A stretch of DNA of 64,000 nt from assembly GCF_001463765.1 (NCBI RefSeq), contig NZ_BBWK01000002.1, forward strand, positions 235,133 to 299,132, given 5' to 3'. The position numbers were made by a program, and so were the translations under genes. Positions 43,653-60,237 of this stretch are shown here, in pieces; positions within the stretch are counted from its first letter, which is position 1; the number at the start of each line of letters is the position of its first letter. Under the pieces are notes generated by a model. That model was given only the letters and a program-made list of their open reading frames with translations, ran no database searches and was not told where the DNA came from. Source of the DNA: Aureimonas sp. AU4. Its GTDB lineage: Bacteria > Pseudomonadota > Alphaproteobacteria > Rhizobiales > Rhizobiaceae.

Positions 43653-44186
43653 ATGCTCCGCCGCTCGCTCGCTGCCGGATTCTGTCTTCTTGCGTCGGTT
43701 CTCGTTCAGGCTCCGGCTTGGGCCGCCGATCCCGATGCCGTTTTCTTCGATCAGGTGTTCGGACGCTGGACGGGTCCGGGCGAGATCGTCGCCGGAAAAT
43801 ACAAGGGCACCAAGTTCACCTGCGATCTCGCCGGTGCCCGGCCCGACCGCGAGGTCGGCATGTCGCTCGATGGAACCTGCCGGGTCGGTCTCTTCTCCCA
43901 GCCGATGAGCGCTCGTTTCGTCCGGGGCGGCTCGTCCTACAAGGGCGCCTTCCTCGACGGCTCGCAGGGCAAGGGGCTGGACATCATATCCGGCAATGTC
44001 GAGGGCAACCGCGTCGTGGTCGGGCTCGACCGCAAGCAGCTGAAGGGCGCCATGGTCGCGCGGCTCGACAATACCGATAAGCTCGCGGTCACGATCTCGG
44101 TCCAGGTGGCGGGAGAACTCGTACCCGTCATCGGCATGACGCTGAAGCGCGACGGCAGCGTCCGCAAGGCGTCGATCGAGCGCTAG
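43653..44186 (+). CDS. Exported protein of unknown function
   Basis: The product is 177 residues with a signal peptide (MLRRSLAAGFCLLASVLVQA, cleaved near AWAA). The mature protein is beta-rich, with FGRWTGPGEIVAGKYKGTKFTC, two cysteines that could form a disulfide (TCDLAG and GTCRVG), and a C-terminal repeat-like IGMTLKRDGSVRKASIER. Similar exported proteins occur across rhizobia but I know no function. It overlaps the convergent folK by four bases. Confidence 0.78.
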   Translation: MLRRSLAAGFCLLASVLVQAPAWAADPDAVFFDQVFGRWTGPGEIVAGKYKGTKFTCDLAGARPDREVGMSLDGTCRVGLFSQPMSARFVRGGSSYKGAFLDGSQGKGLDIISGNVEGNRVVVGLDRKQLKGAMVARLDNTDKLAVTISVQVAGELVPVIGMTLKRDGSVRKASIER

Positions 44187-44683
44187 GCGACCGAACGCCA
44201 CCACTCTCCATCGGCGGTTTCCGACCGTATCGCCGACGCATCGAGGTCGGCGAGCCATGCCTCGACCGTCCGTCCGCCGAACTCGGCGTCCGGCGCGATC
44301 TCGGCAAGCGGAACGAGCACGAAGGCTCGTCGGGTCACCTGCGGGTGCGGCAGCGTTAGCGCATCTGTCGCCCGCCGTTCGCCCGCGCTATCGAGAATGT
44401 CGATGTCGATCGTGCGGGGTCCCCACCGCACGTCCCGCACGCGGTGCAGGCGGCGCTCCGTTTCGAGACAGCATTCCAGAAGCATTTCCGGCTCGAGCAC
44501 CGTCTGAAGTTCGGCGCAGCAGTTCAGGAAGTCGGGCTGCTCCGTCAGTCCCCAGGGCGGTGTCCGGTAGAGACGCGACACTCGGGTTATGCGGCCGGCG
44601 GCCCGATCGAGCCGCGCGAGCGCCTCGGCCATCGCCATGCGCGGATTGCCGAGGTTGCCGCCAAGGCCGAGAAGCGCCCTCAT
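44183..44683 (-). CDS. folK: 6-hydroxymethyl-7,8-dihydropterin pyrophosphokinase
   Basis: This enzyme activates hydroxymethyl-dihydropterin with ATP for dihydropteroate synthesis. The 166-residue product shows the family motifs LGGNLGNPRMAMAEAL, RVSRLYRTPPWGLTEQPDFLNC and the metal/ATP motif RWGPRTIDIDIL. LPHPQVTRRAFVLVPLAEIAP follows. It overlaps folP by four bases (ATGA) and lies downstream of it. No folB lies between them, so that step is encoded elsewhere. Confidence 0.95.
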   Translation of the reverse strand: MRALLGLGGNLGNPRMAMAEALARLDRAAGRITRVSRLYRTPPWGLTEQPDFLNCCAELQTVLEPEMLLECCLETERRLHRVRDVRWGPRTIDIDILDSAGERRATDALTLPHPQVTRRAFVLVPLAEIAPDAEFGGRTVEAWLADLDASAIRSETADGEWWRSVA

Positions 44684-45561
44684 GCGCCTGCCCGCGCGCC
44701 TTGCCGCAACATGGCGTCCGCCACCCGCAAAGCCTCGGCGTTGGCCGCGACATCGTGCACGCGGAAGATCGCGGCGCCCTTGGCGCGCAGGAGTGCCGTC
44801 GTCGCGGCCGTCGCGCGGTCTGCATCTCCGGCTTCTCCCGCCACCGCACGCACGAAGCGCTTGCGCGAGGTACCGACGAGCAGGGGCCGCTCGAGCGCGT
44901 GCAGTTCCGCGAACCGCGCCATCAACGCGAGGTTGGTCGGCACGTCCTTGGCGAAGCCGAATCCCGGATCAAGGACGATCGCCTGCTCCGTGACGCCTGC
45001 CGCGCGCGCGATGTCGAGCGAGCGCGCGAGAAACCGGACCTGGTCGAGGATCGGATCCGGTTCCACCCCCCGTTCGCGGCCGGTATGCATGAGGCAGAGG
45101 CCGGCGCCAGTCCGGGCCGCGACCTCGGCGATGGCCGGTTCGCGCTGCGCACCCCAGACGTCGTTGACGATATGGGCACCGGCGGCGATCGCACGCTCGG
45201 CGGTCTCGGCCCGGTAGGTGTCCACCGAGATCAGGCAGTCGCAGACGCGGGCCAACGCTTCGATCACGGGAAGGACGCGAGCCTGCTCGACGTCTGGCTC
45301 GACCGGTTCGGCATTCGGGCGAGTGGATTCGCCGCCGACATCGATGATTGCGGCCCCCTCCTCAACCATGCGCAGTGCCGCGGCAACGGCCTGCCCGACG
45401 CTCCCTCCATATCGGCCGCCATCGGAGAAGCTGTCGGGCGTACAGTTGAGGATGCCCATCAGGACGCCGTTCGCGCCGAGCGTCAGGTTTCGTCCATGCG
45501 CAAGACGCCAGTCGATAGGACGCGAGTAATCAGTCGAGCTGTCGATTTCTTCGGCGGTCAT
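44680..45561 (-). CDS. folP: Dihydropteroate synthase
   Basis: This enzyme condenses dihydropterin pyrophosphate with p-aminobenzoate and is the sulfonamide target. The TIM-barrel signature GILNCTPDSFSDGG is present, with GGESTRPNAEPV, SVDTYRAETAERA, IVNDVWG and the C-terminal VGTSRKRFVR. The start at 45561 gives 293 residues; the frame is open 51 codons further up, but that sequence overlaps the divergent promoter region of the DUF922 gene. Confidence 0.95.
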   Translation of the reverse strand: MTAEEIDSSTDYSRPIDWRLAHGRNLTLGANGVLMGILNCTPDSFSDGGRYGGSVGQAVAAALRMVEEGAAIIDVGGESTRPNAEPVEPDVEQARVLPVIEALARVCDCLISVDTYRAETAERAIAAGAHIVNDVWGAQREPAIAEVAARTGAGLCLMHTGRERGVEPDPILDQVRFLARSLDIARAAGVTEQAIVLDPGFGFAKDVPTNLALMARFAELHALERPLLVGTSRKRFVRAVAGEAGDADRATAATTALLRAKGAAIFRVHDVAANAEALRVADAMLRQGARAGA

Positions 45562-45656
45562 CGACGTTGCATTAATTTCATACAGAATCCTCTTGTGCCA
45601 CCAGCGCGATTCGTTAGCGTAGGAACCGAACCTTTCAAGTGTCCCGGGAGAGATGC

Positions 45657-46259
45657 ATGAAGTTTGTGGTCGCCGCGACCGCGATCGTCTCCGCGCTGGC
45701 GGCGATGCCCGCAATGGCCGGTCAGGTCAAAGAAAGCACCACTTACTTCATGGTGCGGGGCTCGACGTTCGACGAACTCGACCGCGCGATGGGCATGCAC
45801 GGGCCGCAGTTGCGCAGCGGTGGCGAGCGCCATGCTGGCTCGACGCAGGTCTCGTTCAACGGCGACGCGACCTACAGGACGGTGAACGGCCGCTGCGCAG
45901 TCGACCGAGCGAGCTATCGCCTCTCCCTCCATCAGACCCTTCCACGCTGGAACGCCCCGAAAGGCGCCGACGGGCGAACGAAGGTGCTCTGGAAGACGCT
46001 CCGCGACGACATCCTGACTCATGAGAACCAGCATTCGACCATCGCGAAGGCGGCTCTGAAACGCATCGAGGACACAGTGCGAGAGCTGCCGCCGATGGGC
46101 GACTGCAGCCAGATGGCCTCGAAGGTGAACGCCACGGTGCGCAACATCATCGAGAGCCACGATCGGGAGCAGCTGGCTTTCGATCGATCCGAGGCGCGAG
46201 CCATCGATTCTCGCCTTGCCCGCGAGCTGCGCCGCAATCTTCAGGTCGCCGGCAACTAG
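45657..46259 (+). CDS. DUF922-family exported putative zinc protease
   Basis: The product is 200 residues with a signal peptide (MKFVVAATAIVSALAAMPAMA). The family hallmark is a zincin-like motif HENQH (residues 122-126) in DDILTHENQHSTIAK. A YFMVRGSTFDELDRAM segment, where substrates may bind, precedes it. Catalysis has not been shown for most members. GGGAG lies upstream of the chosen ATG. It is divergent from folP and its stop is only four bases from the convergent ferredoxin stop. Confidence 0.82.
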   Translation: MKFVVAATAIVSALAAMPAMAGQVKESTTYFMVRGSTFDELDRAMGMHGPQLRSGGERHAGSTQVSFNGDATYRTVNGRCAVDRASYRLSLHQTLPRWNAPKGADGRTKVLWKTLRDDILTHENQHSTIAKAALKRIEDTVRELPPMGDCSQMASKVNATVRNIIESHDREQLAFDRSEARAIDSRLARELRRNLQVAGN

Positions 46260-47365: not shown

Positions 47366-50300
47366 ATGTCGAACACCAAGACGGCCGAACAGCTTTCCGA
47401 CGACGCGGTCAACGAGTTGGAAGCCGCGTTGCAGGACACGGACTTTCTGGGCGACCCCGAACGGCTCCAGACCGGCGGCGACGCCGCCGGCCATGTCGAG
47501 GAGGAGGAGCTGAAGGCCGAGGGCGTGTCGATCGACTTCGCCTTCAGCGAGTTCGAGCGCAGCGTCGAGGAAGCGACCAGCGCCCTGCGCGAAGAGCCGG
47601 CCCCCGAGGCGCTGTCGCCTGAGGCGACCGACCCCGTCGAGATGCCGGATGGGGAGCCCGAGGAGCCGGCCGACTTCTCGCTGACCAGCGAGGACCTCCT
47701 CGATCATCCCGTCGCAGCCGCGCCCGAGGTCGAGCCCCCGACACCCTATACCGCCCCATCCGAAGCGGAGCCGCAGGCCGCTGTCGCGGCGGGCGCCGCA
47801 GCCGGCTTCACGGCTGGTCAACTCGCGTCCTCGAGGCTGCGGGCGGAGCGAGCCGCCGGTGACGCTCCCGCCCCGGAACGCGCCGAGCGTCCGCGCGCCG
47901 TCCCGCCCCAGGGCGAGCCCGTCGTCGAAAGCGTTCGATCGCGCGTCGCCAACGACGAGAAGCGATCAGCGGCCGTCATGGCCGACGCCCTGCTCAGCCG
48001 CCGCGCATCGCGCCGCACGGTTGTCGTCGGCAGCATCGTCGCCCTCGCCTGGGTCGTCCTCTCCATCGGAGCCGTGGCCGCCATGCTCAACGATCAGGCC
48101 GGCGGGCTCTCGCTCAGCGCGTCGGGCCTGTCACTGACCGTCGCCGCGATGGCTGTCATCCTGCCCGCGCTGCTGATCATCGCCTTCTCGATCATGGTCC
48201 GCCGTTCCGCCGATCTGCGCCTCATGAGCCGTTCGATGGCTGAGGTCGCCCTTCGGCTCGCCGAACCGGAGTCGATCGCCTCCGAGCGCGTCGCGAGCGT
48301 CGGTCAGGCGATCCGGCGCGAGGTGTCGGCGCTGGGCGAAGGCGTCGAGCGTGCGCTGGCGCGCATGGGCGAACTCGAAGGGCTCGTCCAGACGGAGGTC
48401 TCGTCGCTGGAGCGTGCCTACGCCGACAACGAGGTCAAGATCCGCGCCCTTGTCGCGGATCTTGCGACGGAGCGCGAGGCCATGCTCCAGCACGCCGAGC
48501 ATCTGCGGACCTCGGTGATCGGCTCGCACGAGCGTCTCGTTCAGGACGTCGACGGCGCTTCGACCCGCATTCTCGGACAGATCGAGGAAGCGACCGCACG
48601 CCTCCACACCCTGATGGACGAGCGCAGCCGTGCCCTCTCGGCGACCTACGACGAGCGGAGCCAGGATCTGGCGAACCGTCTCGAGGCGCGGGGCCGCGAA
48701 CTCGACGACGCCCTGCAGCAGTCGAGCAACGACGTTCTCGGCCGCATCGCGCGCGCCGCGGGCGAGACCACAGGCCAGCTTGAAGCGGCTTCGCGCGACC
48801 TGTCGGAGACGTTGGAGCGCCAGACGGCCGAAATCCAGGCCCGCACGGATGCGCTGGTCGAGCGTCTATCGACGGCCGGCACCGAGGCGGACGAGCGCGT
48901 CCGCGCCTCGAACGCGGCGCTGACGGAGCTCCTGGAAACGCGCTCCGAGCTTCTCACGCGCGGTACCGACACGTTCGACCGCAACCTTGCCGCCGTCTTC
49001 GACGAGCGCACGCAGCGCGCGACCGCCGACGGCGAGGCGCTGGTGGCCCGTCTGGTCTCTGCTCTCGACGACCGTTCGCAGCGCCTGACCGGCGATGGCG
49101 ACCGCTTCATCGGCCTTCTGGATCAGAGCCTCGGCGAGCGGATCGAGCGGGCGCATTCGCTGCTCGGCGAGCGAAACGGCGAGGTACTGCGGGCGCTCGA
49201 CGCGCGGCTCGCCACACTCGAGACGCTGGTCGGCGCCCGAGCCGGCGCCATCGTCGAGGCGCTCGGCGAACGTGGTGCGGAGCTTGAGCGCTCCGTCGAT
49301 CAAGCGGATGCGGCGTTGCGCATCCGCGCCGGCGAGTTCGACCGCATGCTGGCGGAGCGCGCGGCCGCGATCGGCGCAGCCTTCACCGTCGGCCAATCCC
49401 ATATCGAGAACACGGCCTCGGCCGTCGTCGGCCGCGTCGACGAGATCCTCGTCGGTCAGGGTGACCAGCTTCGCGCCCTCTTCGACGCCCGCATCGGGTC
49501 GCTCGGATCGGTCCTCAGCGACAGCGCGGCCGAGATCGACACCTCGCTCGCTTTCGCGCAGCAGAATCTGCTCGCCTCGCTGGACGAGCGGGCGCAGGCC
49601 ATCAGCGAAACGCTGGAAGGCAACACGGCCCGCATCGAAGCAGCGCTCGACGGCGCGGACGGCAGACTGGCATCCGGCGTCGCGGCGAAGACCGAGGCGA
49701 TGCGCATCGTCCTAGACCAGGGCGTCGAGCGCCTGACGGGTGTCATGGACAAGCGCAGCGAGACGCTCGGCGGCGTCTTCGCCGATCGCCTCGAGCGGAT
49801 CAACGCGCTGCTCGCCGAGCGCTCCTCGGCCATCAATGTGTCGCTTGAGGACAAGTCCCGCGCGATCGGCGAGGCGATCGAGCTGCATCGCGGCGAGCTG
49901 ACCCGGACGCTGGACGGCCGGACCGGCCGCTTCCTCGCTGACCTCGACGAACGCACGCGCGCCCTGTCGACCGAAGTCGCCGACCGTCTGGCCTCCGGCG
50001 AGACCCTGATGCGCGACAGCGGCGAGCGCCTGACGACGACGCTCGAGCACTACACGTCGCGCCTCGACGGCGACGTCATCGCCCGCCTCGAGGCGGTTCT
50101 TCTGGCGGACGAGACGCGGCGCGAGGAGTTCGTGACGCGGCTCGGCGGCCAGACGAGCGTGATCGAGGAGGCCTTCGAGGCGGCGGTGCGCCGCGTCGCC
50201 GAGACGCTGTCGGCCCGCGTTGCGGACCTGCGCGGCCAGCTCGAATCGTCGGGCGGCTCCATCGCCTCGCTCATCGAGGAGCGTACGGGCGAACTGTCGA

Positions 50301-53300
50301 CCGAGCTCGGCGTCGGCGCATCGGCGGTTCTGGCGGCGATCGAAAGCGCATCGGAACTCCTGACCGAGGGTCTGGAGACCCGCGGATCGACCCTTCGCGA
50401 AAAGGTGGAAGCAGCCCGCGCGGCGATCTTCGATGGCCTGGAGCAGCGGATCGACGCCCTGCGTCAGCTGTCCGACACGTCCGGCACCTCGCTTCTCACG
50501 GACCTCGACGCCCGTACGGAGAAGCTGGCGAGCGAGTTGGATCGCGGTCGCACGGGCATTATGACGACCTTCGACGGGAGGCTCGAGGCGCTCCGCATCG
50601 CGCTGGTCGAGTCGGACGGCCAACTCGCCACCGCGATGGACGAGCGCCGCGACAACCTGACCTCCGCGATCGAGGACGTGGCGAGCTCGCTCGCGGCGAC
50701 CCTTGGCGATCGCGCCGACGACGTGCGCCGCGCGCTCGAGCAGAGCGCCGGTCTGGTCACGCAGTCGCTGGAGGAGAAGCGGACCGAGATCGAGACGGCC
50801 CTTCAGGGCGGCGCCACGGCGCTGGCCGAGGCGGTCGATCAGCGGACCGAGACGATCTCGGCGACGCTGGACCGGGGCCTCGCCAACATCGAGCGCACGC
50901 TAAACGGCCGCGCCTCGCTGATCGCGGACACGCTGCGCGAGTCGATCGTCGCCGCGACCGCCAACCTCGGCGAGGAAGCCGACCGCGCCCGAACCGGCCT
51001 CCGGGGCGAGACCGAGCGCTTCTCGGTGATCGTCGGCGATATCGGCCGCGTGTTCCAGACGTCGTCGGAAGAAGCCCGCGCCCGCTTCGCGGAAGAAGCC
51101 GCCCGCTTCGAGGAGCGCCTGCAGAACGTCCAGGCTTCCGTCGCCGAGACGTCCGAGACGGCGCGCCAGACGCTGACCGGCGAGGCGGAGCGTATCGCCC
51201 GCGACATCGCGACGTCGGCCGAGGCCATCCGTGCCGCAGGCGAGGAGTCGCGCCAGCGCTTCACGCAGGAGGTCGAGACGCTCGGTCGCAACGTGGCCGA
51301 CGTGACGGCCCGCATGAAGGGGGATGCCGAAGAGCTCCGCGAGGCCCTGGCGCTCGAGGGAGATGCCTTCACCACGCAGATCGGCGGCGCGACGCTCGCC
51401 ATGCGGAGCGAGGCGGAAGCGGCGCGCGAGCGCCTGGCCGAGGTGGCCGGCGAGTTCGCGGGCAGCCTGGAAACGATGGCCGAGCGCCTTCGCGAGGAAG
51501 CCGATGCCGCACGCCGGAAGGTGGCCGATCAGGCCGTCGTCCTGGCCGGCGAGGTGGACGCTGCGGGCGAGCGGCTGCGCATCGTCGGCGACCAGTCGCG
51601 CGAGCGCTTCGTCACCGACGCGGCCCAGATCCGCGAAGAGATGGCGGCTGCCTCGATCGGCATGCGCGATCAGGCGGACGCCATGCGCCGCGAGGTGGGC
51701 GAGCACACGACCGCGCTCGTCACCGACTTCACAACGGCCAACGATCGCCTGCGCGAGGCGGGCGACCTCGCCCGCCGCCTGATCCGCGAGGATGCCGGTC
51801 GCATCGCGACCGACGTCGGCAACCTTGCCCTCGCCATGCGCGGCGAGACCGATGTCGCCAAGCGCGAGATCGAAGCCCACGCGCAGCGCGTCGTGACCGG
51901 CATGCAGGAGGCGACCGCCCTCCTCCAGTCGGCCACCGAAGAAGCGCAGGAGCGCATCGGAAGCGATGCGGGACGTCTGGTCGAGAACCTTGCCGCCGCT
52001 TCGGCCGCCCTCGGCCGGCAGGCCGAGGAAGCACGCACCCGCATCAGCGCGGATGCCGAGACCTTCGCGGTCAAGGTCCGCGAGGCGGCCGAGACCGTTG
52101 CCGCCGAGACCGATCGCGGCCACGAGGCGCTGGAAACGCGCGCGGTGCGCTTCGTCGAGGAACTGTCGGGCCTGTCGTCGCTGATCACCGAGGCTTTGGC
52201 CGGAGCGAACGGCGGCATGCGCCAGGAGCTGGCCGAAGCCGCCGGTCATCTGCGCAGCGAGGTGGACGCCGCCGCCGCCGGCATTCGCGAGGACTTCGCC
52301 GGTATCGCCGTCGCAATCCGGCAGGAGAGCGGTGAGGTGTCTGGCGCCATCCTGCGCGACGCGGAAGCCACGCGACGCTCCATGGTCGAGGAAGGCTCGC
52401 AGATCGCGCAGCGCCTCGCCGATGCCGCGACCGCGATCCGCATCGAGGCCGAGCAGGCGCGCGAGCGCATCCTCGTCGACACCTCGACCTTCGGTCAGGA
52501 GATCGAGCGTCAGGTCGAGGGCGCAGACCGCCTCCTCTCCCTGCGGGCGGACGATGTCGGCCAGCGCATGGACGAGCGTACCCGCGCCCTGTCCGATCTT
52601 CTGGGCGAGCGCAACGCCGAGATCGCGCGCCTGATCGAGGAGGAGACTCGTCCGATCGTCGATCGGCTGGGTGCCAGCGGGTCCGAGGCGGTCCGCGCGC
52701 TGGAGACCGCGTCCCGCGAGGTCGCCGCACGCATCCGCGCGGAGAACGCCCAAGCCGCCGAGGCCTTCTCGGTTCGCGCTCAGGAAACGATCCTGCAACT
52801 CGGCCGCTCGGCCCAGGAACTGGTCGAAGCGATCGGCCGGAAGACCGACGACGCGACGGGCGCCATCGAGGGCTCGCGCTCGATCCTGGTGGGCGAGGTC
52901 GCTCAGCTGGTCGATCGCCTGTCCACCGGCAACGCCGCGCTGCAGGAGCTTCTGGAAGAAGCCAACGGCAGCCTTGGCCGTGCGGAAAGCACGCTTCACG
53001 AGACCGGGGGCCGCTTCCGCGAGCAGGCGGAGAAGCTCGGCGACGAGATCGCCGCCTCGTCCGACCGCCTGGAGCGCAACGTCACGCAGCTCGGGCAGGC
53101 GACGAGCGGTTCCGCGGATCGGCTCGGCGCCCTCCTCGAGCGCTTCGGCGAGCACGGCCGCACGCTCGGCGAGGTGGCGAGCCTCCTCGACTCAACGCAG
53201 TCGAACCTGCAGCTGACGCTGGACGAGCGTCGCGAGGCGCTGGACACGCTTGCCCAGGGCCTGACGCAACGCTCCAGCGAGATCGATGGCATGCTGAGGT

Positions 53301-54478
53301 CGTTCGAGGGCGTCGTCGGAACGATGTTCGCCGACGTCGAGGCTCGCAGCACGAAGGTGACGCAGGGTCTACGTGAGGGCCTCACGGCCACGCTGTCCGA
53401 GACCGGGCGCCAGCTGGAGGAGACCGAGCGCCGCTCGCAGGAGGCTTCCGAGAGCGTTCGCGAATCCGTGCAGAGCGTCATCGAGGAGGCGACCGATCGC
53501 TTCGCCCAGGCGACCGGCGCGCTCCGCCAGGCCGCCAAGGACATCCGCGAGGAACTCGAGAATGCACGCGGCGAGATCCGCCGGGGCGTCTTCGAACTGC
53601 CGGACGAGACGCGGGAAAGCACGCGCGCCATGCGACGGGCGGTCTCGGACCAGATCCGCGCGCTGCGCGAACTGAGCGAGATCGTGTCGCAGTCCGGGCG
53701 CGCCCTGGATGCCCAGGTCCCGCAGTCCGGCCAGCGTGTGCGGACTGCCGAGCCGCAGCCGCAGCGTCCGGCGGCGCAGCGGCCGGCGCAGCAGGTCAGC
53801 GAAGACGAGGTCGAGAACCGCCTCGCCGGCAGTCTGATCGTCGAAGGAAACCTGGCTCGCGACATGCGGTCCGGCGGAGGCTACCAGTCGACGGCGAGCA
53901 CGCAGAGCCAGCCGTCCGCGTCGTCGACCTCGCCGGCTCCGGCGCCGCGCACCGGGTCCGCCCTGCGTCCCTCGACGCCGGCTCCGGCCCCCGCACCGGC
54001 CGCTACGGCCGAGCGTCAGGGCGGTTGGGTGTCGGATCTCCTCCGTCGTGCCTCGGAGGACGAAGACGACGCCGAGCCGATGCGCGAGCCCGAAGGCGAT
54101 CGCCGACCGGTCCAGGCCGAGCGCAGTCAGGCCCACGTGGTGGACTCGCTGAACTCTCTGTCGGTGGATATCGCCCGGGCGATCGACCACAACGCGTCGG
54201 TGGAACTGTGGGACCGCTACCGGGCGGGCGAGCGCAACGTCTTTACGCGCCGCCTCTACACCATGAAGGGGCAGCAGACGTTCGACGAGATCCGCCGGAA
54301 GTACCAGCGGGATACGGAGTTCCGTAAGGCGGTGGATCGCTACATCGCGGACTTCGAGCTGCTGCTGGCGGACGCGGCCCGGAAGGACCCCGACAACACG
54401 CGCTCCAAGGGCTACCTGACCTCCGACACCGGAAAGGTCTACACGATGCTGGCACACGCGTCGGGCCGCTTCGACTGA
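47366..54478 (+). CDS. gpr: Giant membrane-anchored repeat protein, Growth Pole Ring (GPR)-like
   Basis: The protein has 2,370 residues. An acidic N-terminus (about 1-215) is followed by two membrane spans (about 217-240 and 255-278). A very long alpha-helical region carries perfect tandem 22-residue repeats (about 418-1207), then 29-residue repeats (about 1208-1727), then further coiled coil to about 2110. A Pro/Ala/Ser-rich linker (about 2125-2230) joins a conserved C-terminal domain (VELWDRYRAGERNVFTRRLY, GYLTSDTGKVYTMLAH). This architecture and its apolipoprotein-like repeats match GPR of Agrobacterium, which forms a ring at the growing pole and is needed for rod shape. The ATG at 47366 is chosen from the conserved-looking MSNTKTAEQLSDD; identity is by architecture. 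Confidence 0.8.
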   Translation: MSNTKTAEQLSDDAVNELEAALQDTDFLGDPERLQTGGDAAGHVEEEELKAEGVSIDFAFSEFERSVEEATSALREEPAPEALSPEATDPVEMPDGEPEEPADFSLTSEDLLDHPVAAAPEVEPPTPYTAPSEAEPQAAVAAGAAAGFTAGQLASSRLRAERAAGDAPAPERAERPRAVPPQGEPVVESVRSRVANDEKRSAAVMADALLSRRASRRTVVVGSIVALAWVVLSIGAVAAMLNDQAGGLSLSASGLSLTVAAMAVILPALLIIAFSIMVRRSADLRLMSRSMAEVALRLAEPESIASERVASVGQAIRREVSALGEGVERALARMGELEGLVQTEVSSLERAYADNEVKIRALVADLATEREAMLQHAEHLRTSVIGSHERLVQDVDGASTRILGQIEEATARLHTLMDERSRALSATYDERSQDLANRLEARGRELDDALQQSSNDVLGRIARAAGETTGQLEAASRDLSETLERQTAEIQARTDALVERLSTAGTEADERVRASNAALTELLETRSELLTRGTDTFDRNLAAVFDERTQRATADGEALVARLVSALDDRSQRLTGDGDRFIGLLDQSLGERIERAHSLLGERNGEVLRALDARLATLETLVGARAGAIVEALGERGAELERSVDQADAALRIRAGEFDRMLAERAAAIGAAFTVGQSHIENTASAVVGRVDEILVGQGDQLRALFDARIGSLGSVLSDSAAEIDTSLAFAQQNLLASLDERAQAISETLEGNTARIEAALDGADGRLASGVAAKTEAMRIVLDQGVERLTGVMDKRSETLGGVFADRLERINALLAERSSAINVSLEDKSRAIGEAIELHRGELTRTLDGRTGRFLADLDERTRALSTEVADRLASGETLMRDSGERLTTTLEHYTSRLDGDVIARLEAVLLADETRREEFVTRLGGQTSVIEEAFEAAVRRVAETLSARVADLRGQLESSGGSIASLIEERTGELSTELGVGASAVLAAIESASELLTEGLETRGSTLREKVEAARAAIFDGLEQRIDALRQLSDTSGTSLLTDLDARTEKLASELDRGRTGIMTTFDGRLEALRIALVESDGQLATAMDERRDNLTSAIEDVASSLAATLGDRADDVRRALEQSAGLVTQSLEEKRTEIETALQGGATALAEAVDQRTETISATLDRGLANIERTLNGRASLIADTLRESIVAATANLGEEADRARTGLRGETERFSVIVGDIGRVFQTSSEEARARFAEEAARFEERLQNVQASVAETSETARQTLTGEAERIARDIATSAEAIRAAGEESRQRFTQEVETLGRNVADVTARMKGDAEELREALALEGDAFTTQIGGATLAMRSEAEAARERLAEVAGEFAGSLETMAERLREEADAARRKVADQAVVLAGEVDAAGERLRIVGDQSRERFVTDAAQIREEMAAASIGMRDQADAMRREVGEHTTALVTDFTTANDRLREAGDLARRLIREDAGRIATDVGNLALAMRGETDVAKREIEAHAQRVVTGMQEATALLQSATEEAQERIGSDAGRLVENLAAASAALGRQAEEARTRISADAETFAVKVREAAETVAAETDRGHEALETRAVRFVEELSGLSSLITEALAGANGGMRQELAEAAGHLRSEVDAAAAGIREDFAGIAVAIRQESGEVSGAILRDAEATRRSMVEEGSQIAQRLADAATAIRIEAEQARERILVDTSTFGQEIERQVEGADRLLSLRADDVGQRMDERTRALSDLLGERNAEIARLIEEETRPIVDRLGASGSEAVRALETASREVAARIRAENAQAAEAFSVRAQETILQLGRSAQELVEAIGRKTDDATGAIEGSRSILVGEVAQLVDRLSTGNAALQELLEEANGSLGRAESTLHETGGRFREQAEKLGDEIAASSDRLERNVTQLGQATSGSADRLGALLERFGEHGRTLGEVASLLDSTQSNLQLTLDERREALDTLAQGLTQRSSEIDGMLRSFEGVVGTMFADVEARSTKVTQGLREGLTATLSETGRQLEETERRSQEASESVRESVQSVIEEATDRFAQATGALRQAAKDIREELENARGEIRRGVFELPDETRESTRAMRRAVSDQIRALRELSEIVSQSGRALDAQVPQSGQRVRTAEPQPQRPAAQRPAQQVSEDEVENRLAGSLIVEGNLARDMRSGGGYQSTASTQSQPSASSTSPAPAPRTGSALRPSTPAPAPAPAATAERQGGWVSDLLRRASEDEDDAEPMREPEGDRRPVQAERSQAHVVDSLNSLSVDIARAIDHNASVELWDRYRAGERNVFTRRLYTMKGQQTFDEIRRKYQRDTEFRKAVDRYIADFELLLADAARKDPDNTRSKGYLTSDTGKVYTMLAHASGRFD

Positions 54479-54751: not shown

Positions 54752-55348
54752 TCAGACGAGACCGATCGTCCAGGCGACGATCTCATCCGCCACCGAACCG
54801 AAGGCCGCGTCGATCGCTTCGACATAGGCGGCGTTGCCGGCACCGCGCGCCGCCTGCTCACCGCGGAAGATACGGGTCGCGCGGACCTGTCCGGTCCGGT
54901 CGTTGAGGACCTTCGCGGAGATCTCGACGATCGCGGTCGGGCTCGGCGTCAGCGACATCTCGAAGCGACGGACCTCCATCACGACCTGATAGTCGATCGC
55001 CAGCCCCTGCCCCGGAACGCCGGCGGCGCCGACGCGCCCCGTGTTCTGGAACCCCTGCAGAAGGCGCAATTGCACGAGGCGCGGCAGGCGATCGGTCCAC
55101 TGGCTGTCGCCGAGATACTCGACCGTCTGGGGCGTCGGCTTGACGACGATCTGCTGGCTGTCGAGCGTCTTGGTCGCGGTCGGCTCGGGGATCAGAATCT
55201 GCGCCCGTGTCGAGGCGCGCTTCACCTGCGCGGGCGGTGGCGGCGAGAGCTCGAAGGTCGCAGGAGGCTGGCGGGTCGAGCCGCAGGCCGCAAGCGCCAG
55301 GGCCATCGCGCCGAGCATGAGATATTTCGAGAAAGCGATACGCGGCAT
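54752..55348 (-). CDS. ABC-type transport auxiliary lipoprotein (PqiC/MlaX-like)
   Basis: The product is 198 residues with a lipoprotein signal (lipobox LALAAC, Cys lipidated, followed by GSTRQPP). The mature part has the ABC_trans_aux fold features ILIPEPTATKTLDSQQIVV and VEYLGDSQWTDRLPRLVQLRLLQGF. Such lipoproteins sit on the outer membrane and partner with MCE proteins to bridge lipid transport across the periplasm. The start at 55348 is set by the signal peptide. It is the last gene of the mlaE-F-D-lipoprotein operon. Confidence 0.85.
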   Translation of the reverse strand: MPRIAFSKYLMLGAMALALAACGSTRQPPATFELSPPPPAQVKRASTRAQILIPEPTATKTLDSQQIVVKPTPQTVEYLGDSQWTDRLPRLVQLRLLQGFQNTGRVGAAGVPGQGLAIDYQVVMEVRRFEMSLTPSPTAIVEISAKVLNDRTGQVRATRIFRGEQAARGAGNAAYVEAIDAAFGSVADEIVAWTIGLV

Positions 55349-55422
55349 GGTCCCCTCAACGCAGCACACTGGCGAGGCAAGGGCGCACGGGCCCCTGCCG
55401 TCGTCCGTCTTGACGTTCCCTG

Positions 55423-57096
55423 TCACCGGCGCACCCGCCCGTCATACTCGCGAACCTGTCCGGATCCGCTTCCCCCGCCTCCGAAGAGAACGCGGCTCGG
55501 ATCGTTGGTGAGATCGACGATGGCGGTCTCGACGCGGCGAACGGCTTCCGTGGTGGTGCGGATCAGGTTGCGGACTTCCTGCAGGCCCTGACCGGAGAAG
55601 TTCTGAATATTGGCCGTGATCGGCCCGACCGAGCGCTGGATCGTCTCGGCGGTCTGGCGGATGGACTGGAGCGTCTGGCGCGCCTCGGCGGTCAGACCCT
55701 TGCCATCGGGGCTATTCACGAGACCGTCGACGGAGTTGATGAGGCCCTGAACCTGCGCCGAAGCGACGCGCAGGTTGGCGCTCGTGTCGCGGGCGTTGGT
55801 GATGAACTGGTCGATGTCCTCGCGGCGCTTTCCGATGTCGTCGGCCACGCCGCGCACGGAGTCTGCGGCGGCCGCGATGTTGGTGGTCGCGGACGACACG
55901 TTGTTGATCGCCGTGCCGACATCGGCCGGATCGATTCCGGCGAGGATCTCGTCGACGCGCGCGCGCGTTCCGTTGAGGCCCGAAAGAGCACCGTTGAGCG
56001 TGGCGAGCGCGGTGTCGGCGCCTGCAATCACCGAGCCGACGCGGCCGGACTGCGCATCGAGTGCGCCCGCGAAGCTGCTGACGCCGTCCACGGTGCGGCG
56101 AATCTGCTGGGGATCCACCGCCGCCGTGATCTCCTTGACGTCGGCGAGCGTGTTGTCGAGCCGCGCGGCAACGCTCGTCGCCGTTTCCGAAAGCGGACCG
56201 AGGCGCCCGAGGAAGGCCTGCACGCTCGGCAGGCTGTCGTTGAGCGTCTGGCCGACGCCGCCGAAGCTGCGGGCGGTCGACGTGATCGACTCGATCGCGG
56301 CGACGATATCTCCGGTCTGGTCGCGGACCGCCTGCGTGATGGAGGCGACGTTCTGGATCGACTGATTGACCGAGGCGACGTCGAGCGCGCTCACGAAGCT
56401 ACCGACCTGATCGAGGATCGGCGGCAGACGCAATGCCACGTTGTTGGCGCTCTCCGACAGACGGCCGAGGCTGCCGAGGAAGTCGTCGATCTGGTCGGCA
56501 TTGGCGGCAAGGCTCGCCGTGAAGGTCTGCACGTTCTCGGACGTGCGGCTGACGTTCTGCGCCGTGGTCAGGACGGCCGGGCCGACCGCCTGCACGATGC
56601 TCTCGAACTGGCCGAGGATGTTGTTCGCACGCTCGGCGATGTCGCGGGCCGTCGCCAGGATGTCGGTCACATCGGACGGGTTGGCGACGATCACGGGCAC
56701 GGCGCCCTGTTCGGCAGCCGAGGCGATGATGTTGCGATCGTTCACGTTGCCGCCCGACAGGCCGATGAAGCTGACGCCGGTGAGGCCCTGCGAGCCGAGC
56801 GAGGCGGTGGTCGAGGTCGTGACGGGAGTCGTGCGGTCGATCTGCGTCGTCGCGATCACGACGCGCGGGTTGTTGGGGTCGATGCGCAGGTTCGTGACGG
56901 TACCGACGCCCAGGCCGTTGAAGAGGACCTGACTTCCCTGGCTGAGTCCGGACACGGATCCCTCGATGCGCACGAGAAGGGTCGTGCGCGAGTCGCGGTC
57001 CGATACGTTGGCGGTCCAGTACACGAAGCCGAAGCTGGCGAGCAGGACGGCGACGGTGAAGATGCCGACGAGGACGTAGTTGGCCCGGTTTTCCAT
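55423..57096 (-). CDS. mlaD: MlaD-family MCE protein, long form
   Basis: This is a periplasmic lipid-binding component anchored in the inner membrane. One N-terminal span (residues 8-28) is followed by a single MCE domain (about 38-115, GSQVLFNGLGVGTVTNLRID). An extended helical tail of over 400 residues is rich in Asn, Ser and Thr. E. coli MlaD has only about 183 residues; the long tail recalls PqiB/YebT-like or actinobacterial Mce proteins that form tubes or needles. Its ATG overlaps the stop of the ATPase gene by one base. Confidence 0.9.
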   Translation of the reverse strand: MENRANYVLVGIFTVAVLLASFGFVYWTANVSDRDSRTTLLVRIEGSVSGLSQGSQVLFNGLGVGTVTNLRIDPNNPRVVIATTQIDRTTPVTTSTTASLGSQGLTGVSFIGLSGGNVNDRNIIASAAEQGAVPVIVANPSDVTDILATARDIAERANNILGQFESIVQAVGPAVLTTAQNVSRTSENVQTFTASLAANADQIDDFLGSLGRLSESANNVALRLPPILDQVGSFVSALDVASVNQSIQNVASITQAVRDQTGDIVAAIESITSTARSFGGVGQTLNDSLPSVQAFLGRLGPLSETATSVAARLDNTLADVKEITAAVDPQQIRRTVDGVSSFAGALDAQSGRVGSVIAGADTALATLNGALSGLNGTRARVDEILAGIDPADVGTAINNVSSATTNIAAAADSVRGVADDIGKRREDIDQFITNARDTSANLRVASAQVQGLINSVDGLVNSPDGKGLTAEARQTLQSIRQTAETIQRSVGPITANIQNFSGQGLQEVRNLIRTTTEAVRRVETAIVDLTNDPSRVLFGGGGSGSGQVREYDGRVRR

Positions 57097-57953
57097 CAGT
57101 GCTTCTCGTCGGTATCCGCATCGTCGTCCGGGACCACGATGGCCCGGGCGCGCTTGCCATGGAAATAGGATCGGACCCAGGGGTCGTCGTTGTCGAGCAT
57201 GGTCTGAAGCGGCCCCTCGACGAGGACCTTCTTCTTGCCGAGAACCGCGATCCGGTCGCAGGCCTGATAGAGGCTGTCGAGGTCGTGGGTCACCATGTAG
57301 ACGGTGAGCCCCAGCGTATCGCGCAGCGTCATGATGAGCTCGTCGAACTCGGCCGCGCCGATCGGGTCGAGGCCCGAGGTCGGCTCGTCCAGGAAGACGA
57401 TGTCGGGATCGAGCGACAGGGCGCGGGCCAGCGCGGCGCGCTTGATCATGCCTCCCGAGAGCTCGGAGGGGTATTTCTCGGCCGCGTCCGGGGCAAGCCC
57501 GACGAGGTCGATCTTGAGCCGCGCCAACTCGTCCATCAGCGGCGGCGACAGATCGAGATACTCGCGCATCGGGACCTGGATGTTCTCCAGAACCGTCAGC
57601 GACGAGAAGAGCGCGCCCTGCTGGAACAGGACGCCCCAGCGCTGCTCGACGGAAAGGCGCTGCTCCTCGGGCGCGCGCTCGTAGTCGATGCCGAAGACCT
57701 CGATCGTGCCGCCCTGCTTGGCGTTGAGGCCGAGAATCGTGCGCAGCAGCACGGACTTGCCGGTTCCCGAGGCGCCGACGAAGCCGAGGATCTCGCCGCG
57801 GCGCACGTCGAGCGACAGCCCGTCCAGAATCGTCTTCGAGCCGAAGCGGACGGTCACGTCGCTCGCGCGGATGATGACGTCGTGCTCGTCGCCGTGCTTC
57901 GGCCGGGGGGAATCAGTATCCGATGGCGGCATAGAAGATCGCGAAGACGGCAT
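57096..57953 (-). CDS. mlaF: MlaF-type ABC transporter ATP-binding protein
   Basis: The protein has 285 residues. Walker A is GASGTGKSVLLRTI, the signature is LSGGMIKRAALARAL, Walker B is DIVFLDEPTSGLDPIG and the H-loop is VTHDLDS. The QRWGVLFQQGALFSSLTV stretch is diagnostic of the MlaF/Ttg2A group. It energises lipid movement with MlaE. The start is uncertain: the ATG at 57953 overlaps mlaE by 41 bases, whereas the one at 57932 overlaps by 20. Neither has a clear ribosome-binding site, fitting translational coupling. Confidence 0.94.
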   Translation of the reverse strand: MPSSRSSMPPSDTDSPRPKHGDEHDVIIRASDVTVRFGSKTILDGLSLDVRRGEILGFVGASGTGKSVLLRTILGLNAKQGGTIEVFGIDYERAPEEQRLSVEQRWGVLFQQGALFSSLTVLENIQVPMREYLDLSPPLMDELARLKIDLVGLAPDAAEKYPSELSGGMIKRAALARALSLDPDIVFLDEPTSGLDPIGAAEFDELIMTLRDTLGLTVYMVTHDLDSLYQACDRIAVLGKKKVLVEGPLQTMLDNDDPWVRSYFHGKRARAIVVPDDDADTDEKH

Positions 57954-59094
57954 CGAGGAGGATGACGAGGAAGATGGATTTCACCACGGAGGCGGTGACG
58001 TGCTGGCCAAGGCTCTCGGCGCTGCCGCCGACCTTCATGCCCTCCATCGAGGCGACGACGCCGATGAGGATCGCCATGAAGGGCGCTTTCAGGAGGCCCG
58101 CGAACACCGTGCCGACCGTGACGGCGGCCCGCATGCGGGTAATGAAGGCTTCCGGCGGGATGCCGGAATAGACCCAGGTGATGGCGATGGCGCCGACGAG
58201 GCCCGCGATGTCGGCGATGAAGGCCAGAAGCGGCAGCACGATGATCAGCGCGACGAGGCGCGGGAAGACGAGGACGCCGATCGGATTGAGGCCGATGACG
58301 TGCAGCGCGTCGACCTCCTCGCGCATCTTCATCGAGCCGATCTCGGCCGTGATCGCCGAGCCCGATCGACCGGCTATCATGATGGCGGTCAGAAGGACGC
58401 CGATTTCGCGAAGCTGGAGAATGCCGACGAGGTCGACGACGAAGATCTCGGCACCGAAGTTGCGCAGCTGGAAGGCGCCCTGCTGCGCGATCACCGCCCC
58501 GATCAGAAAGCTCATGAGAGCGATGATCGGCACGGCGCGAACGCCCATCCGATCCATCTGGTTGACGATGGCGGCCGGCCGCCAACGCGTCTGCCCGGTC
58601 AGGCGCCGCCCGGCGCCGTAGAGTGCGGCGCCGACGATGTTGACGCCGGACAGGCTCTCGCGCCCGATCGCGAAGACGTTCTCGCCGATGGAGGCGAAGA
58701 AGTCCGTGACGGGCGTCTTCGGCGGCTTCTTGTTGTCGGGACGCTTGACGTCGAGCGCCTTGCGCACGGCGTCGAACAGGGTCTGGTCGCTCTTCGCGAT
58801 CCCCTCGAAGGAGACCTCTCCGCCCTTGGCCGCCAAACGTCGCGACAAACGCTCGACGAGATAGGCGCCCGACGTGTCGAAGCGGCCGACGCCGGAACAG
58901 TCGATCGTGACCTGCTTGCCGAGATCGGCCTTGCCGGTCTCCTCGACCTTGCTCTCGACCCCGCCAACGGTGCGCGCCAGCCAGTCGCCACCCAGCCGCA
59001 GCCGCAGCCCGCCGCCGTCCTTGTCGGCGTCGAGCGTCGGCGCGGACGTCTCGCGCGTCGCGTCACGCCGATCGGATTGGGGCACGTCGAGCAT
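57913..59094 (-). CDS. mlaE: MlaE-type ABC permease with fused N-terminal STAS (MlaB-like) domain
   Basis: The protein has 393 residues. Residues 1-120 resemble a STAS domain (VTIDCSGVGRFDTSGAYLVERLSRRL), the role played by separate MlaB in E. coli. The permease part follows with the MlaE signature region FLIGAVIAQQGAFQLRNFGAEIFVVDLVG and EIGSMKMREEVDALHVIGLNPI, containing the coupling helix that contacts MlaF. It is the first gene of the operon, divergent from the epimerase. Start chosen at 59094; an open frame extends far upstream but has no conserved content. Confidence 0.93.
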   Translation of the reverse strand: MLDVPQSDRRDATRETSAPTLDADKDGGGLRLRLGGDWLARTVGGVESKVEETGKADLGKQVTIDCSGVGRFDTSGAYLVERLSRRLAAKGGEVSFEGIAKSDQTLFDAVRKALDVKRPDNKKPPKTPVTDFFASIGENVFAIGRESLSGVNIVGAALYGAGRRLTGQTRWRPAAIVNQMDRMGVRAVPIIALMSFLIGAVIAQQGAFQLRNFGAEIFVVDLVGILQLREIGVLLTAIMIAGRSGSAITAEIGSMKMREEVDALHVIGLNPIGVLVFPRLVALIIVLPLLAFIADIAGLVGAIAITWVYSGIPPEAFITRMRAAVTVGTVFAGLLKAPFMAILIGVVASMEGMKVGGSAESLGQHVTASVVKSIFLVILLDAVFAIFYAAIGY

Positions 59095-59247
59095 GTGAGC
59101 GGATCGGGATCCTTGATTTCGTTGGCCGGCCGGAGCGTAGGTTGCCGATACGCGCACCCACGGTCGTCGGGCAAAGGCCGATGGCTCCAGACCTAGTGGA
59201 CCCCGTGGGGCGGGCAAAGAGTCGTTGATCGATCGTGAAGGATTAAC

Positions 59248-60237
59248 ATGCGTCGTCGTCTTTTGGTCACAGTGGAGCGCTGGCCGCTCGCCGCAGCCTT
59301 CACCATCTCGCGTGGGTCGAAGACCGAGGCCGTCGTCGTGCGTTGCCGGATCGAGGAGGACGGGGCGGCGGGACAGGGCGAATGTGTGCCCTACCCGCGC
59401 TACAACGAAACGCCGGACGGTGTAGCGTCGCTGATCGAGACCATGCGGGACGCCGTCGAGAGCGGGCTGAACCGGGACGAGCTCCAGTCGCGCCTGCCGG
59501 CCGGCGCCGCCCGCAACGCGCTCGACTGCGCCCTTTGGGACCTCGAGGCGAAGCAAACCGGAACCCCGGTCTGGAAGCTCGCCGGGCTGCCGCAGCCGGC
59601 GGCGGTCGAAACCGCCTTCACGATCTCCCTCGCCACGCCGGATGCCATGGCGGAGGCGACGCGAGCGGCAGCCTCGCGTCCCGTCCTGAAGATCAAGCTC
59701 GGCGGCGGCGACGGCCTCGACGGCGAACGCCTCGAGGCCGTGCGGCAGGCGGCACCCGAGGCGCGGCTTCTGATCGATGCCAACGAGGGCTGGCGCGGCG
59801 ACGTCCTGGCGCAGCACATGCGTCAGGCGGCGGCGATCGGTGCCTCCGTCGTCGAGCAACCCCTGCCTGCCTCCGACGACATCATGCTCGCGAACCTGTC
59901 GCGCCCGTTGCCGGTCTGCGCCGACGAGAGCGTCCACGGCGCGGACAGCATCGCCGCGCTGGCGGGGCGCTACGACTTCCTCAACCTGAAGCTCGACAAG
60001 ACGGGCGGGCTGACGGAGGGACTTCGCTTCCTGCGCGAGGCGCGCGCACATGGATTCGGCGTCATGGTCGGCTGCATGGTGGGCACCTCGCTCTCCATGG
60101 CGCCGGCCCTGCTGCTGGCGCAGGAAGCCGAGTTCGTCGATCTCGACGGACCGCTGCTTCTTTCGCGCGACCGCGAGCCGGGCCTGCGTTACGAAGGGTC
60201 GCGGGTCTTTCCCGCCACCCCCGCGCTTTGGGGCTGA
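59248..60237 (+). CDS. Dipeptide epimerase-like enolase-superfamily racemase
   Basis: The protein has 329 residues, with the muconate-lactonising subgroup fold. Catalytic Lys residues are in LKIKLGGG (KxK). Metal ligands are Asp in LLIDANEGW, Glu in VVEQPLP and Asp in VCADESVH, and the opposing catalytic Lys is in LNLKLDKTGG. Related enzymes are L-Ala-D/L-Glu epimerases of murein recycling and N-acetyl-D-Glu racemase (DgcA); without the dgcN partner I favour the dipeptide reaction only loosely. The family assignment is firm, the substrate is not. Confidence 0.85.
   Translation: MRRRLLVTVERWPLAAAFTISRGSKTEAVVVRCRIEEDGAAGQGECVPYPRYNETPDGVASLIETMRDAVESGLNRDELQSRLPAGAARNALDCALWDLEAKQTGTPVWKLAGLPQPAAVETAFTISLATPDAMAEATRAAASRPVLKIKLGGGDGLDGERLEAVRQAAPEARLLIDANEGWRGDVLAQHMRQAAAIGASVVEQPLPASDDIMLANLSRPLPVCADESVHGADSIAALAGRYDFLNLKLDKTGGLTEGLRFLREARAHGFGVMVGCMVGTSLSMAPALLLAQEAEFVDLDGPLLLSRDREPGLRYEGSRVFPATPALWG

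What the first reader, a model, noticed from the sequence alone, without database searches (positions are those of the whole stretch)
48617..52547. Exact 22-residue repeats switching abruptly to exact 29-residue repeats in one helix
By hand alignment, residues about 418-1207 divide largely into consecutive 22-mers of the type DERxxxLxxxLxxxxxxLxxxL (for example DERAQAISETL..., DQGVERLTGVM...). From residue 1208 (base 50987) the unit becomes 29 residues (ARTGL..., ARARF..., ARQTL..., SRQRF..., and on through at least 14 head-to-tail copies with no gap). 22 residues fit 3.67 residues per turn and 29 fit 3.63, so the two halves should supercoil differently. Such regularity over about 1,300 residues implies a length-defining, filament or ruler function.
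Basis: seen in the sequence. Interest (0 to 1): 0.85.

Follow-up and report, generated by a model that had tools for sequence, protein, structure and literature searches.

The report
Growth-pole rod with switching repeat lengths
This gene encodes an Aureimonas-type version of the giant bacterial growth-pole protein called GPR or RgsE, and its long, predicted helical rod is written in blocks of repeats that switch sharply from 11 (or 22) residues to 29 residues and back, which likely lets the rod be lengthened block by block while its hydrophobic seam stays in register.

Summary
ORF 47366-54478 (2370 aa) has an 11/22-residue repeat over residues 375-1190 and a 29-residue repeat from residue 1191 to about 1713; its first 14.4 units run without a slip. 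Both far exceed shuffles. "Exact" is true of unit length, not of sequence (about 20% identity between neighbouring units), and the basic unit of the first half is 11.

The protein is the orthologue of GPR/RgsE, the polar-growth scaffold of Hyphomicrobiales: two TM segments, a C-terminal domain 67% identical to the S. meliloti protein, shared folK-folP-DUF922 synteny.

Beyond the finding: in 185 homologue sequences, 924 of 931 strongly periodic stretches use a period near alpha-helix pitch (11, 18, 25, 29, 40, 47, 51 and multiples). Blocks lie in lineage-typical order, some of near-constant and others of very variable copy number. In the closest relatives insertions are mostly whole units. S. 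meliloti RgsE has the same switch. The "apolipoprotein" Pfam match survives shuffling that keeps only hendecad composition, so it is no evidence of kinship with lipid carriers.

A fixed-length ruler is not supported. A modular coiled-coil rod is most likely; oligomeric state and the switch's function are untested.

The parts
47366..54478 (+). GPR/RgsE orthologue, 2370 aa, ATG start
   Evidence: ORF, PF01442 3e-52, C-terminal 159 residues 67% identical to the 2089-aa S. meliloti protein, E 1e-68
48011..48211 (+). two hydrophobic segments, residues about 216-243 and 247-282, taken as the membrane anchor
   Evidence: Kyte-Doolittle windows above 1.6
48488..50935 (+). block A, residues 375-1190: 11/22-residue repeat, about 37 copies of 22 (74 hendecads)
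   Evidence: cyclic HMM parse, lag test, two slips
50936..52504 (+). block B, residues 1191-1713: 29-residue repeat, about 18 copies, unbroken for 1191-1607
52505..52975 (+). block A', residues 1714-1870: return of the 11/22-residue repeat, about 7 copies of 22
   Evidence: lag 22 z 6.4, shuffle maximum 4.05
52976..53671 (+). helical tail, residues 1871-2102, weak mixed 7/18/25/29 periodicity; parsed as a short 29-type stretch at 1989-2102
53720..54115 (+). proline/alanine-rich linker, residues about 2119-2250
   Evidence: proline positions, sequence
54122..54475 (+). conserved C-terminal all-helical domain, residues about 2253-2370 (...SDTGKVYTMLAHASGRFD)
   Evidence: alignment of 21 sequences, AlphaFold2 of residues 2211-2370: pTM 0.66; no PDB fold at E<=0.001, no Pfam family at E<=1
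54752..60051 (-). convergent Mla/MCE-type lipid-transport genes: auxiliary lipoprotein 54752-55426, MlaD 55423-57096, ATPase 57096-57953, MlaE within ORF 57913-60051
   Evidence: Pfam; conserved neighbour
44183..46259 (.). upstream genes shared with S. meliloti: folK-like 44183-44683 (-), folP 44680-45714 (-), DUF922 45639-46259 (+)
   Evidence: Pfam for folP and DUF922; folK named by position and by its S. meliloti counterpart, not by a Pfam scan

Best explanation
It is the GPR/RgsE growth-pole scaffold protein, and its repeat blocks most likely make a membrane-anchored modular coiled-coil rod: lengths of helix with different seam twist (11/3 weakly right-handed, 29/8 nearly straight) that can be extended in whole units between conserved parts. 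Shown here: the repeat lengths, the sharp switch, the block order and its recurrence in relatives, whole-unit length changes in close relatives, the narrow hydrophobic seam with small residues at every third (11-type) or every second (29-type) layer. Predicted: one continuous helix through the switch. Inferred: two or a few helices pair along the seam; each unit is 7a+11b residues long because only such lengths bring the seam back to the same face of an alpha-helix; the conserved C-terminal domain and the constant joints carry the contacts, while the variable blocks are spacers.
For: Identity: C-terminal 67% and N-terminal 41% identity to the 2089-aa S. meliloti protein, with folK-folP-DUF922 synteny; RgsE is 2,089 aa and cytoplasmic with two TM helices (PMC7327166 passages). 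Blocks. Period grammar: 924 of 931 strongly periodic windows from 185 sequences lie at 11k, 18k, 29k, 25, 40, 47 or 51; control, 1 of 138 windows of other frames of this window is periodic at that level. Coiled-coil-like seam: about two strongly hydrophobic positions per 11 (LIVMF 0.86-0.95) with S/G/A/T in the third layer; in 29-type units large residues at 5, 12, 16, 23 and mostly Ala or small ones at 1, 9, 19, 27. That fits the published remark that dimeric FilP and Scy keep Ala in hendecad cores (PMC9858780 passage). No proline at residues 302-1762. Helix predicted unbroken at residues 1114-1231 across the switch. Whole-unit changes: in pairs at least 85% identical, 28 of 39 gaps in 11-type blocks are multiples of 11 and 4 of 4 in 29-type blocks multiples of 29. 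Near-constant first block, joint and last block, with variable 18- and 29-blocks between, in a 30-protein clade.
Against: Oligomeric state was not modelled or measured; the AlphaFold2 model of the switch is a lone helix with short breaks at fragment residues 34 and 153-155, pTM 0.33, 19 related sequences. The only PDB sequence matches are to apolipoprotein A-IV (E 0.0035 and 0.0046). Whole-unit gaps weaken with divergence: at 75% identity or more, 138 of 176 (11-type), 30 of 79 (29-type), 8 of 32 (18-type); aligners favour in-register gaps, and proteins recur in several pairs. The 29-block is not universal: 59 of 87 other family loci and 3 of 59 order sequences have a 29-residue window, and a Shinella homologue has none.
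Confidence: 0.7

Rival explanations
1. The rod is an apolipoprotein-like amphipathic helix that lies on or gathers lipids at the growing pole, as proposed for Agrobacterium GPR; 11/22-mers are the apolipoprotein unit.
For: PF01442 at 177.5 bits, above its cut-off of 90; ApoA-IV as the only PDB match, at residues 1243-1427; published view (PMC8262873 sections); MCE/Mla-type lipid-transport genes next door in 20 of 23 Aurantimonadaceae loci, 27 of 42 other family loci and 18 of 46 order loci with at least 2 kb of downstream sequence.
Against: In residues 375-704 the PF01442 score of 46.3 bits falls only to 41.7-43.7 in three shuffles that keep just the residue composition of each hendecad position, while one full shuffle gives no match: the match needs periodicity, not descent. 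The hydrophobic face is narrow; the blocks are acidic (-6.4 to -6.5 net charges per 100) with under 1% Lys, unlike lipid-binding class A helices (recalled).
Confidence: 0.2
2. The period blocks are by-products of tandem duplication: any unit that keeps the helix seam in phase is tolerated, and the choice of 11, 18 or 29 has no function of its own.
For: Copy numbers vary widely; A. ureilytica DSM 18598 has a 116-residue (4 x 29) insertion against A. ureilytica NS365, with 83% identity at lag 58 over 58 residues, a fresh duplication; a sequence of another family, G013, has a 29-block of its own.
Against: Block type, order and place are kept: 29-blocks map to the tree with 18 changes against a shuffled mean of 55 (minimum 40 of 200), 18-blocks with 19 against 41 (minimum 33); a joint of 4.7-5.6 hendecads stands between the 18- and 29-blocks in 27 of 30 clade members.
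Confidence: 0.25
3. The rod is a ruler: total repeat length sets a fixed distance, such as ring spacing.
For: Long, regular, nearly proline-free helix; block A of the Aureimonas-like sequences is nearly constant at 36.6-37.3 copies.
Against: No fixed length: 2333-3081 aa among 29 Aurantimonadaceae sequences and 846-2940 aa open frames among 54 complete homologues of the order sample.
Confidence: 0.12

Closest known systems
GPR (Agrobacterium tumefaciens Atu1348) and RgsE (Sinorhizobium meliloti SMc00190)
   Same: N-terminal TM pair, long proline-poor helical cytoplasmic rod matching PF01442, conserved C-terminal domain, synteny with S. meliloti; the 2089-aa S. meliloti protein has the same 11 -> 29 -> 11 order (29-block near residues 980-1330).
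   Different: Longer here (2370 aa) and with a longer 29-block. The GPR sequence itself was not in hand; localisation and ring formation were not tested.
Scy and FilP (actinobacterial polar-growth coiled coils)
   Same: Polar-growth scaffolds with long non-heptad coiled coils; Scy's unit is 51 residues in 14 turns (PMC3718342 passage), again a sum of 7s and 11s, and hendecads with Ala in the core (PMC9858780 passages).
   Different: Those carry a DivIVA-like N-terminal motif; no DivIVA family was among the Pfam matches here. No sequence relation was shown, so a resemblance in kind.
SF-assemblin
   Different: Eukaryotic, about 240 helical residues, one period only; no sequence relation tested.
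Apolipoprotein A-I/A-IV/E repeats (PF01442)
   Same: 11/22-residue amphipathic periodicity.
   Different: The match is reproduced by register-wise shuffles; narrow seam and acidic composition.

Membership tests
GPR/RgsE | two N-terminal transmembrane segments before a long cytoplasmic rod | tested here: met
   hydropathy windows at 216-282; no proline at 302-1762
GPR/RgsE | repeated PF01442 matches over the rod | tested here: met
   3e-52, 9 stretches
GPR/RgsE | orthology to a studied member (sequence and gene neighbourhood) | tested here: met
   67% identity over the C-terminal 159 residues and 41% over the TM region to the 2089-aa S. meliloti protein; folK, folP and DUF922 upstream in both. 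That this record's gene is RgsE is inferred from its length and context.
GPR/RgsE | ring or foci at the growing pole; loss rounds the cell | not testable with these tools
   reported for GPR and RgsE (PMC8262873, PMC7327166); no experiment here
Apolipoprotein (lipid-carrier) superfamily by descent | sequence similarity beyond shared periodicity and composition | tested here: not met
   residues 375-704 only: real 46.3 bits, three register-wise shuffles 41.7-43.7, one full shuffle none; the 29-block was not put to this test
FilP/Scy (DivIVA-like) | DivIVA-like N-terminal motif | tested here: not met
   no DivIVA model among Pfam matches of the whole protein (E<=0.001) or of its first 374 residues (E<=1)
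ZorA (Zorya defence) | score above the NCBIfam cut-off for ZorA | tested here: not met
   26.7 bits against a cut-off of 190, in the rod only
Kinesin (label of the S. meliloti record) | motor domain | tested here: not met
   no kinesin motor among Pfam matches of this protein; the S. meliloti protein itself was not scanned

The most novel reading that the evidence does not exclude
GPR-type proteins are twist-coded, length-tunable rods: each lineage writes its growth-pole scaffold as a series of blocks whose repeat lengths are successive best fractions of the alpha-helix (11/3, 18/5, 29/8, 47/13), so that the seam runs right-handed, left-handed, straight and right-handed again between constant joints, and block copy number sets the geometry of the growth-pole ring. 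7, 11, 18, 29, 47 each sum the two before; this is the arithmetic of a pitch near 3.62, not a coincidence to be explained otherwise.
Probability: 0.3. Interest if true: 0.85.

Novelty: new variant of a known kind. Interest (0 to 1): 0.64.

Why it matters
GPR/RgsE organises unipolar growth in Hyphomicrobiales, yet its huge helical part has had no structural reading beyond 'apolipoprotein-like'. The block map gives one: it says where the rod changes twist, which parts are constant and which are free to grow, and it removes the main sequence argument for lipid-carrier kinship. It makes published deletions open to a new reading: a 21-residue deletion in a hendecad rod turns everything beyond it by about one residue (near 100 degrees), while a 22-residue one would not (inferred). 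It also makes polar-growth scaffolds of two phyla look alike in kind: Scy repeats every 51 residues, GPR every 11, 18, 29 or 47.

Tried and rejected
Considered and set aside: a fixed ruler (lengths vary); apolipoprotein descent (shuffle control); ZorA (below cut-off); DNA-level tandem array (none listed in the blocks); a heptad coiled coil (7/2 has almost no power in A or B). A first automatic choice of reading frames in the order loci failed for many loci and was replaced by frames picked at the hit coordinates; the first choice of start codons was redone. The C-terminal domain has no fold match at E<=0.001 among 90 listed at E<=10 and no PDB sequence match at E<=1. The first protein search gave 106 proteins, 1310-1803 aa as listed, and added little; the second (region 2230-2370) gave 469, of which 120 were listed.

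Limits: the two-cycle HMM was seeded from the window and trained on the sequences it then parsed, and the three-cycle one was seeded from one member of the clade; the lag tests do not depend on them. Of 30 named loci, 28 were used: L021 (start not found) and L034 (no complete frame) were dropped. The 185 sequences include 7 re-fetched duplicates and several cut by contig ends; the tree used 174, then 167 without duplicates. The 30-protein clade was picked by eye from the tree; for its copy numbers were copied by hand, and where a block was split one piece was taken (for L195's last block the two pieces were added). The MCE neighbour count is a minimum (tblastn with the window's proteins); S. 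meliloti Ak57 has an IS110 transposase and cytochrome bc1 genes there instead.
Full report
What it is. The nearest named relative is Aureimonas jatrophae (77% over the N-terminal 445 residues), so the window is from an Aureimonas-like bacterium (inferred). The protein has two hydrophobic segments at residues 216-282, no proline at residues 302-1762, a Pro/Ala-rich linker and a conserved C-terminal domain. Pfam gives PF01442 at 3e-52. A Sinorhizobium meliloti record holds a 2089-aa protein labelled kinesin that is 67% identical over the C-terminal 159 residues and 41% over the TM region, downstream of folK, folB, folP and a DUF922 gene, as here (folP and DUF922 by Pfam, folK by its likeness in place). 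RgsE is reported as 2,089 aa, cytoplasmic with two TM helices, homologous to GPR (PMC7327166, passages). I take the window gene to be the GPR/RgsE orthologue. N-terminal matches occur in 60 of 61 genomes of an order sample and 100 of 101 of a family sample.

The observation. Autocorrelation gives 11/22 multiples in residues 375-1190 and 29/58/87 in 1191-1713, far above 1000 shuffles each. Masking hydrophobic residues, Ala and Gly leaves the 29-residue signal in block B and the 11/22 signal in block A and removes the others, so both are repeats of sequence and not only of helix pitch. Fourier peaks are 3.664 and 3.630 residues per turn. The likelihood switch is at 1191. The 29-register runs 14.4 units without a slip, and the 22-register slips at 491 and 653 by +4, which equals a heptad in place of a hendecad. 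Neighbouring units share only about 20% identity.

The switch is a family trait with variable lengths. In 29 Aurantimonadaceae sequences (window plus 28 of 30 loci) a lag-22 block is followed by a lag-29 block and a lag-22 block. The parse gives 36.6-74 copies of 22, 12-22 copies of 29, a second 22-type block, and a last 29-type stretch of about 3.9 copies in 26 of 29. A model-free 29-against-22 score is at least 8.2 in all 29; in the order sample it reaches that in 1 of 54 complete proteins (G013, 14.6; next 5.9). Further family loci show many more 29-blocks. By strong windows, 29 occurs in 29 of 29, 10 of 10 (7 of these re-fetched), 59 of 87 and 3 of 59 sequences of the four sets, and 18/36 in 2, 0, 40 and 10. 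On a tree of 167 sequences the 29 label needs 18 changes against a shuffled mean of 55, the 18 label 19 against 41. The S. meliloti protein has lag 29 at z 12.8 over 980-1330 (maximum of 300 shuffles 3.7) between 11-type stretches. A Shinella homologue has none.

A grammar of periods. Over 185 sequences, 931 non-overlapping 240-residue windows pass a comb score of 6 (highest in 1000 shuffles 4.0). Of these, 924 have their best period at 11, 22, 33, 44, 55, 18, 36, 29, 58, 25, 40, 47 or 51; the seven others are 8 (2), 12, 31 (2), 38 and 43. All the common ones are sums of 7 and 11 and close to 3.6 residues per turn. In other reading frames of this window 1 of 138 windows passes. In a clade of 30 family members the order is 11, 18, a short 11-type joint, 29, 11. 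The first block is within one unit of 27.5 hendecads in 23 of 30 and the last within one unit of 25.0 in 29 of 30; the joint is 4.7-5.6 hendecads in 27 of 30. The 18-block has 1.6-62.9 copies and the 29-block 2.2-26.3. So length is changed inside blocks while the joints stay.

How blocks grow. In pairs at least 85% identical in the conserved ends, 28 of 39 gaps in 11-type blocks are multiples of 11, 4 of 4 in 29-type blocks multiples of 29 and 1 of 1 in 18-type blocks a multiple of 18; at 75% or more the counts are 138 of 176, 30 of 79 and 8 of 32. Aligners favour in-register gaps, so the cleanest cases are pairs with a single gap: L025/L028 132, L014/L016 44, and L011/L012 (two A. ureilytica) 116 = 4 x 29. 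In the longer of the last pair a 58-residue window is 83% identical at lag 58.

Physical reading. With 3.63 residues per turn for a free helix (PMC9858780, passage), 11/3 turns the seam by +0.99 degrees per residue (one turn in 363 residues), 29/8 by -0.14 and 18/5 by -0.83. So block A should be weakly right-handed and block B nearly straight (inferred). AlphaFold2 on residues 1080-1307 gives a helix without a break at 1114-1231, across the switch (mean pLDDT 77, pTM 0.33). The seam is narrow: positions 3, 10, 14 and 21 of the 22-mer are 86-95% LIVMF and no other position exceeds 33%, with Ser, Gly, Ala and Thr leading in the third layer. In the 29-mer, positions 5, 12, 16 and 23 are 85-100% LIVMF and positions 1, 9, 19 and 27 are rich in Ala. 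Net charge is -6.4 to -6.5 per 100 in all blocks, Lys under 1%. This points to a slim coiled coil with small residues in the core rather than a membrane-lying helix, but pairing was not tested.

The apolipoprotein label. For residues 375-704, PF01442 scores 46.3 bits; three shuffles keeping only the composition of each hendecad position score 41.8, 43.7 and 41.7, and one full shuffle finds nothing. The match therefore reports hendecad periodicity. The PDB matches are ApoA-IV at E 0.0035 and 0.0046, over residues 1242-1430, inside the 29-block. In GPR the best ApoA-IV match is domain A-IV-1, aa 1036-1381, whose deletion abolishes paired foci (PMC8262873 sections); by position this would be the 29-block seen at 980-1330 in S. 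meliloti (inferred; the GPR sequence was not in hand). The same paper names coiled-coil deletions of 21 aa in its abstract and residues 413-434 or 413-433 in the text, so register effects are possible but the exact length is unclear. It also states that the 1,700-residue helix would be 600 nm when extended; at 0.15 nm per residue (textbook value) a helix would be about 255 nm.

Neighbours. Convergent with gpr lie an ABC auxiliary lipoprotein, MlaD, an ATPase and MlaE. This is conserved in at least 20 of 23, 27 of 42 and 18 of 46 loci (Aurantimonadaceae, other family, order) with 2 kb or more downstream. It is a hint of a lipid link independent of the apolipoprotein label, but S. meliloti Ak57 lacks it there.

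Known and new. GPR and RgsE are known; in the two papers the words repeat (GPR paper), periodic, heptad and hendecad (both) do not occur in the main text. Searches for growth pole ring with apolipoprotein, RgsE, hendecad periodicity, newer GPR papers, Atu1348, Rhizobiales with hendecad and 29-residue repeat listed no paper that, by title and abstract, describes the blocks; only open-licence papers are held, listings were not read in full, and the first GPR paper (reference 13 of PMC8262873) was not read. Precedents in kind: Scy's 51-residue, 14-turn unit (PMC3718342), FilP/Scy hendecads (PMC9858780), SF-assemblin's 29-residue repeat (PMC6070942); enumeration of coiled-coil periods (PMC9369452, passages). 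Hence a new variant of a known kind.

Noticed in passing
54752-60051 (-): Mla/MCE-type lipid-transport genes convergent with gpr, kept in many Hyphomicrobiales loci: a possible functional link of growth-pole scaffold and lipid supply.
   Followed up: partly
L012 residues 1198-1835: Fresh duplication inside the 29-block of A. ureilytica DSM 18598: 58 residues 83% identical at lag 58, 116 residues more than strain NS365.
   Followed up: yes
54122-54475 (+): Highly conserved all-helical C-terminal domain with no Pfam family and no PDB fold match.
   Followed up: partly
G013 residues 1150-1460 (locus L068): A strong 29-residue block (z 13.2 at lag 29) in a member of another family, poorly fitted by the window's 29-model; perhaps of independent origin.
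   Followed up: partly
55423-57096 (-): The MlaD protein has a long C-terminal part with weak heptad-like periodicity (period 7, score 6.1, the only other periodic window found in this window).
   Followed up: no
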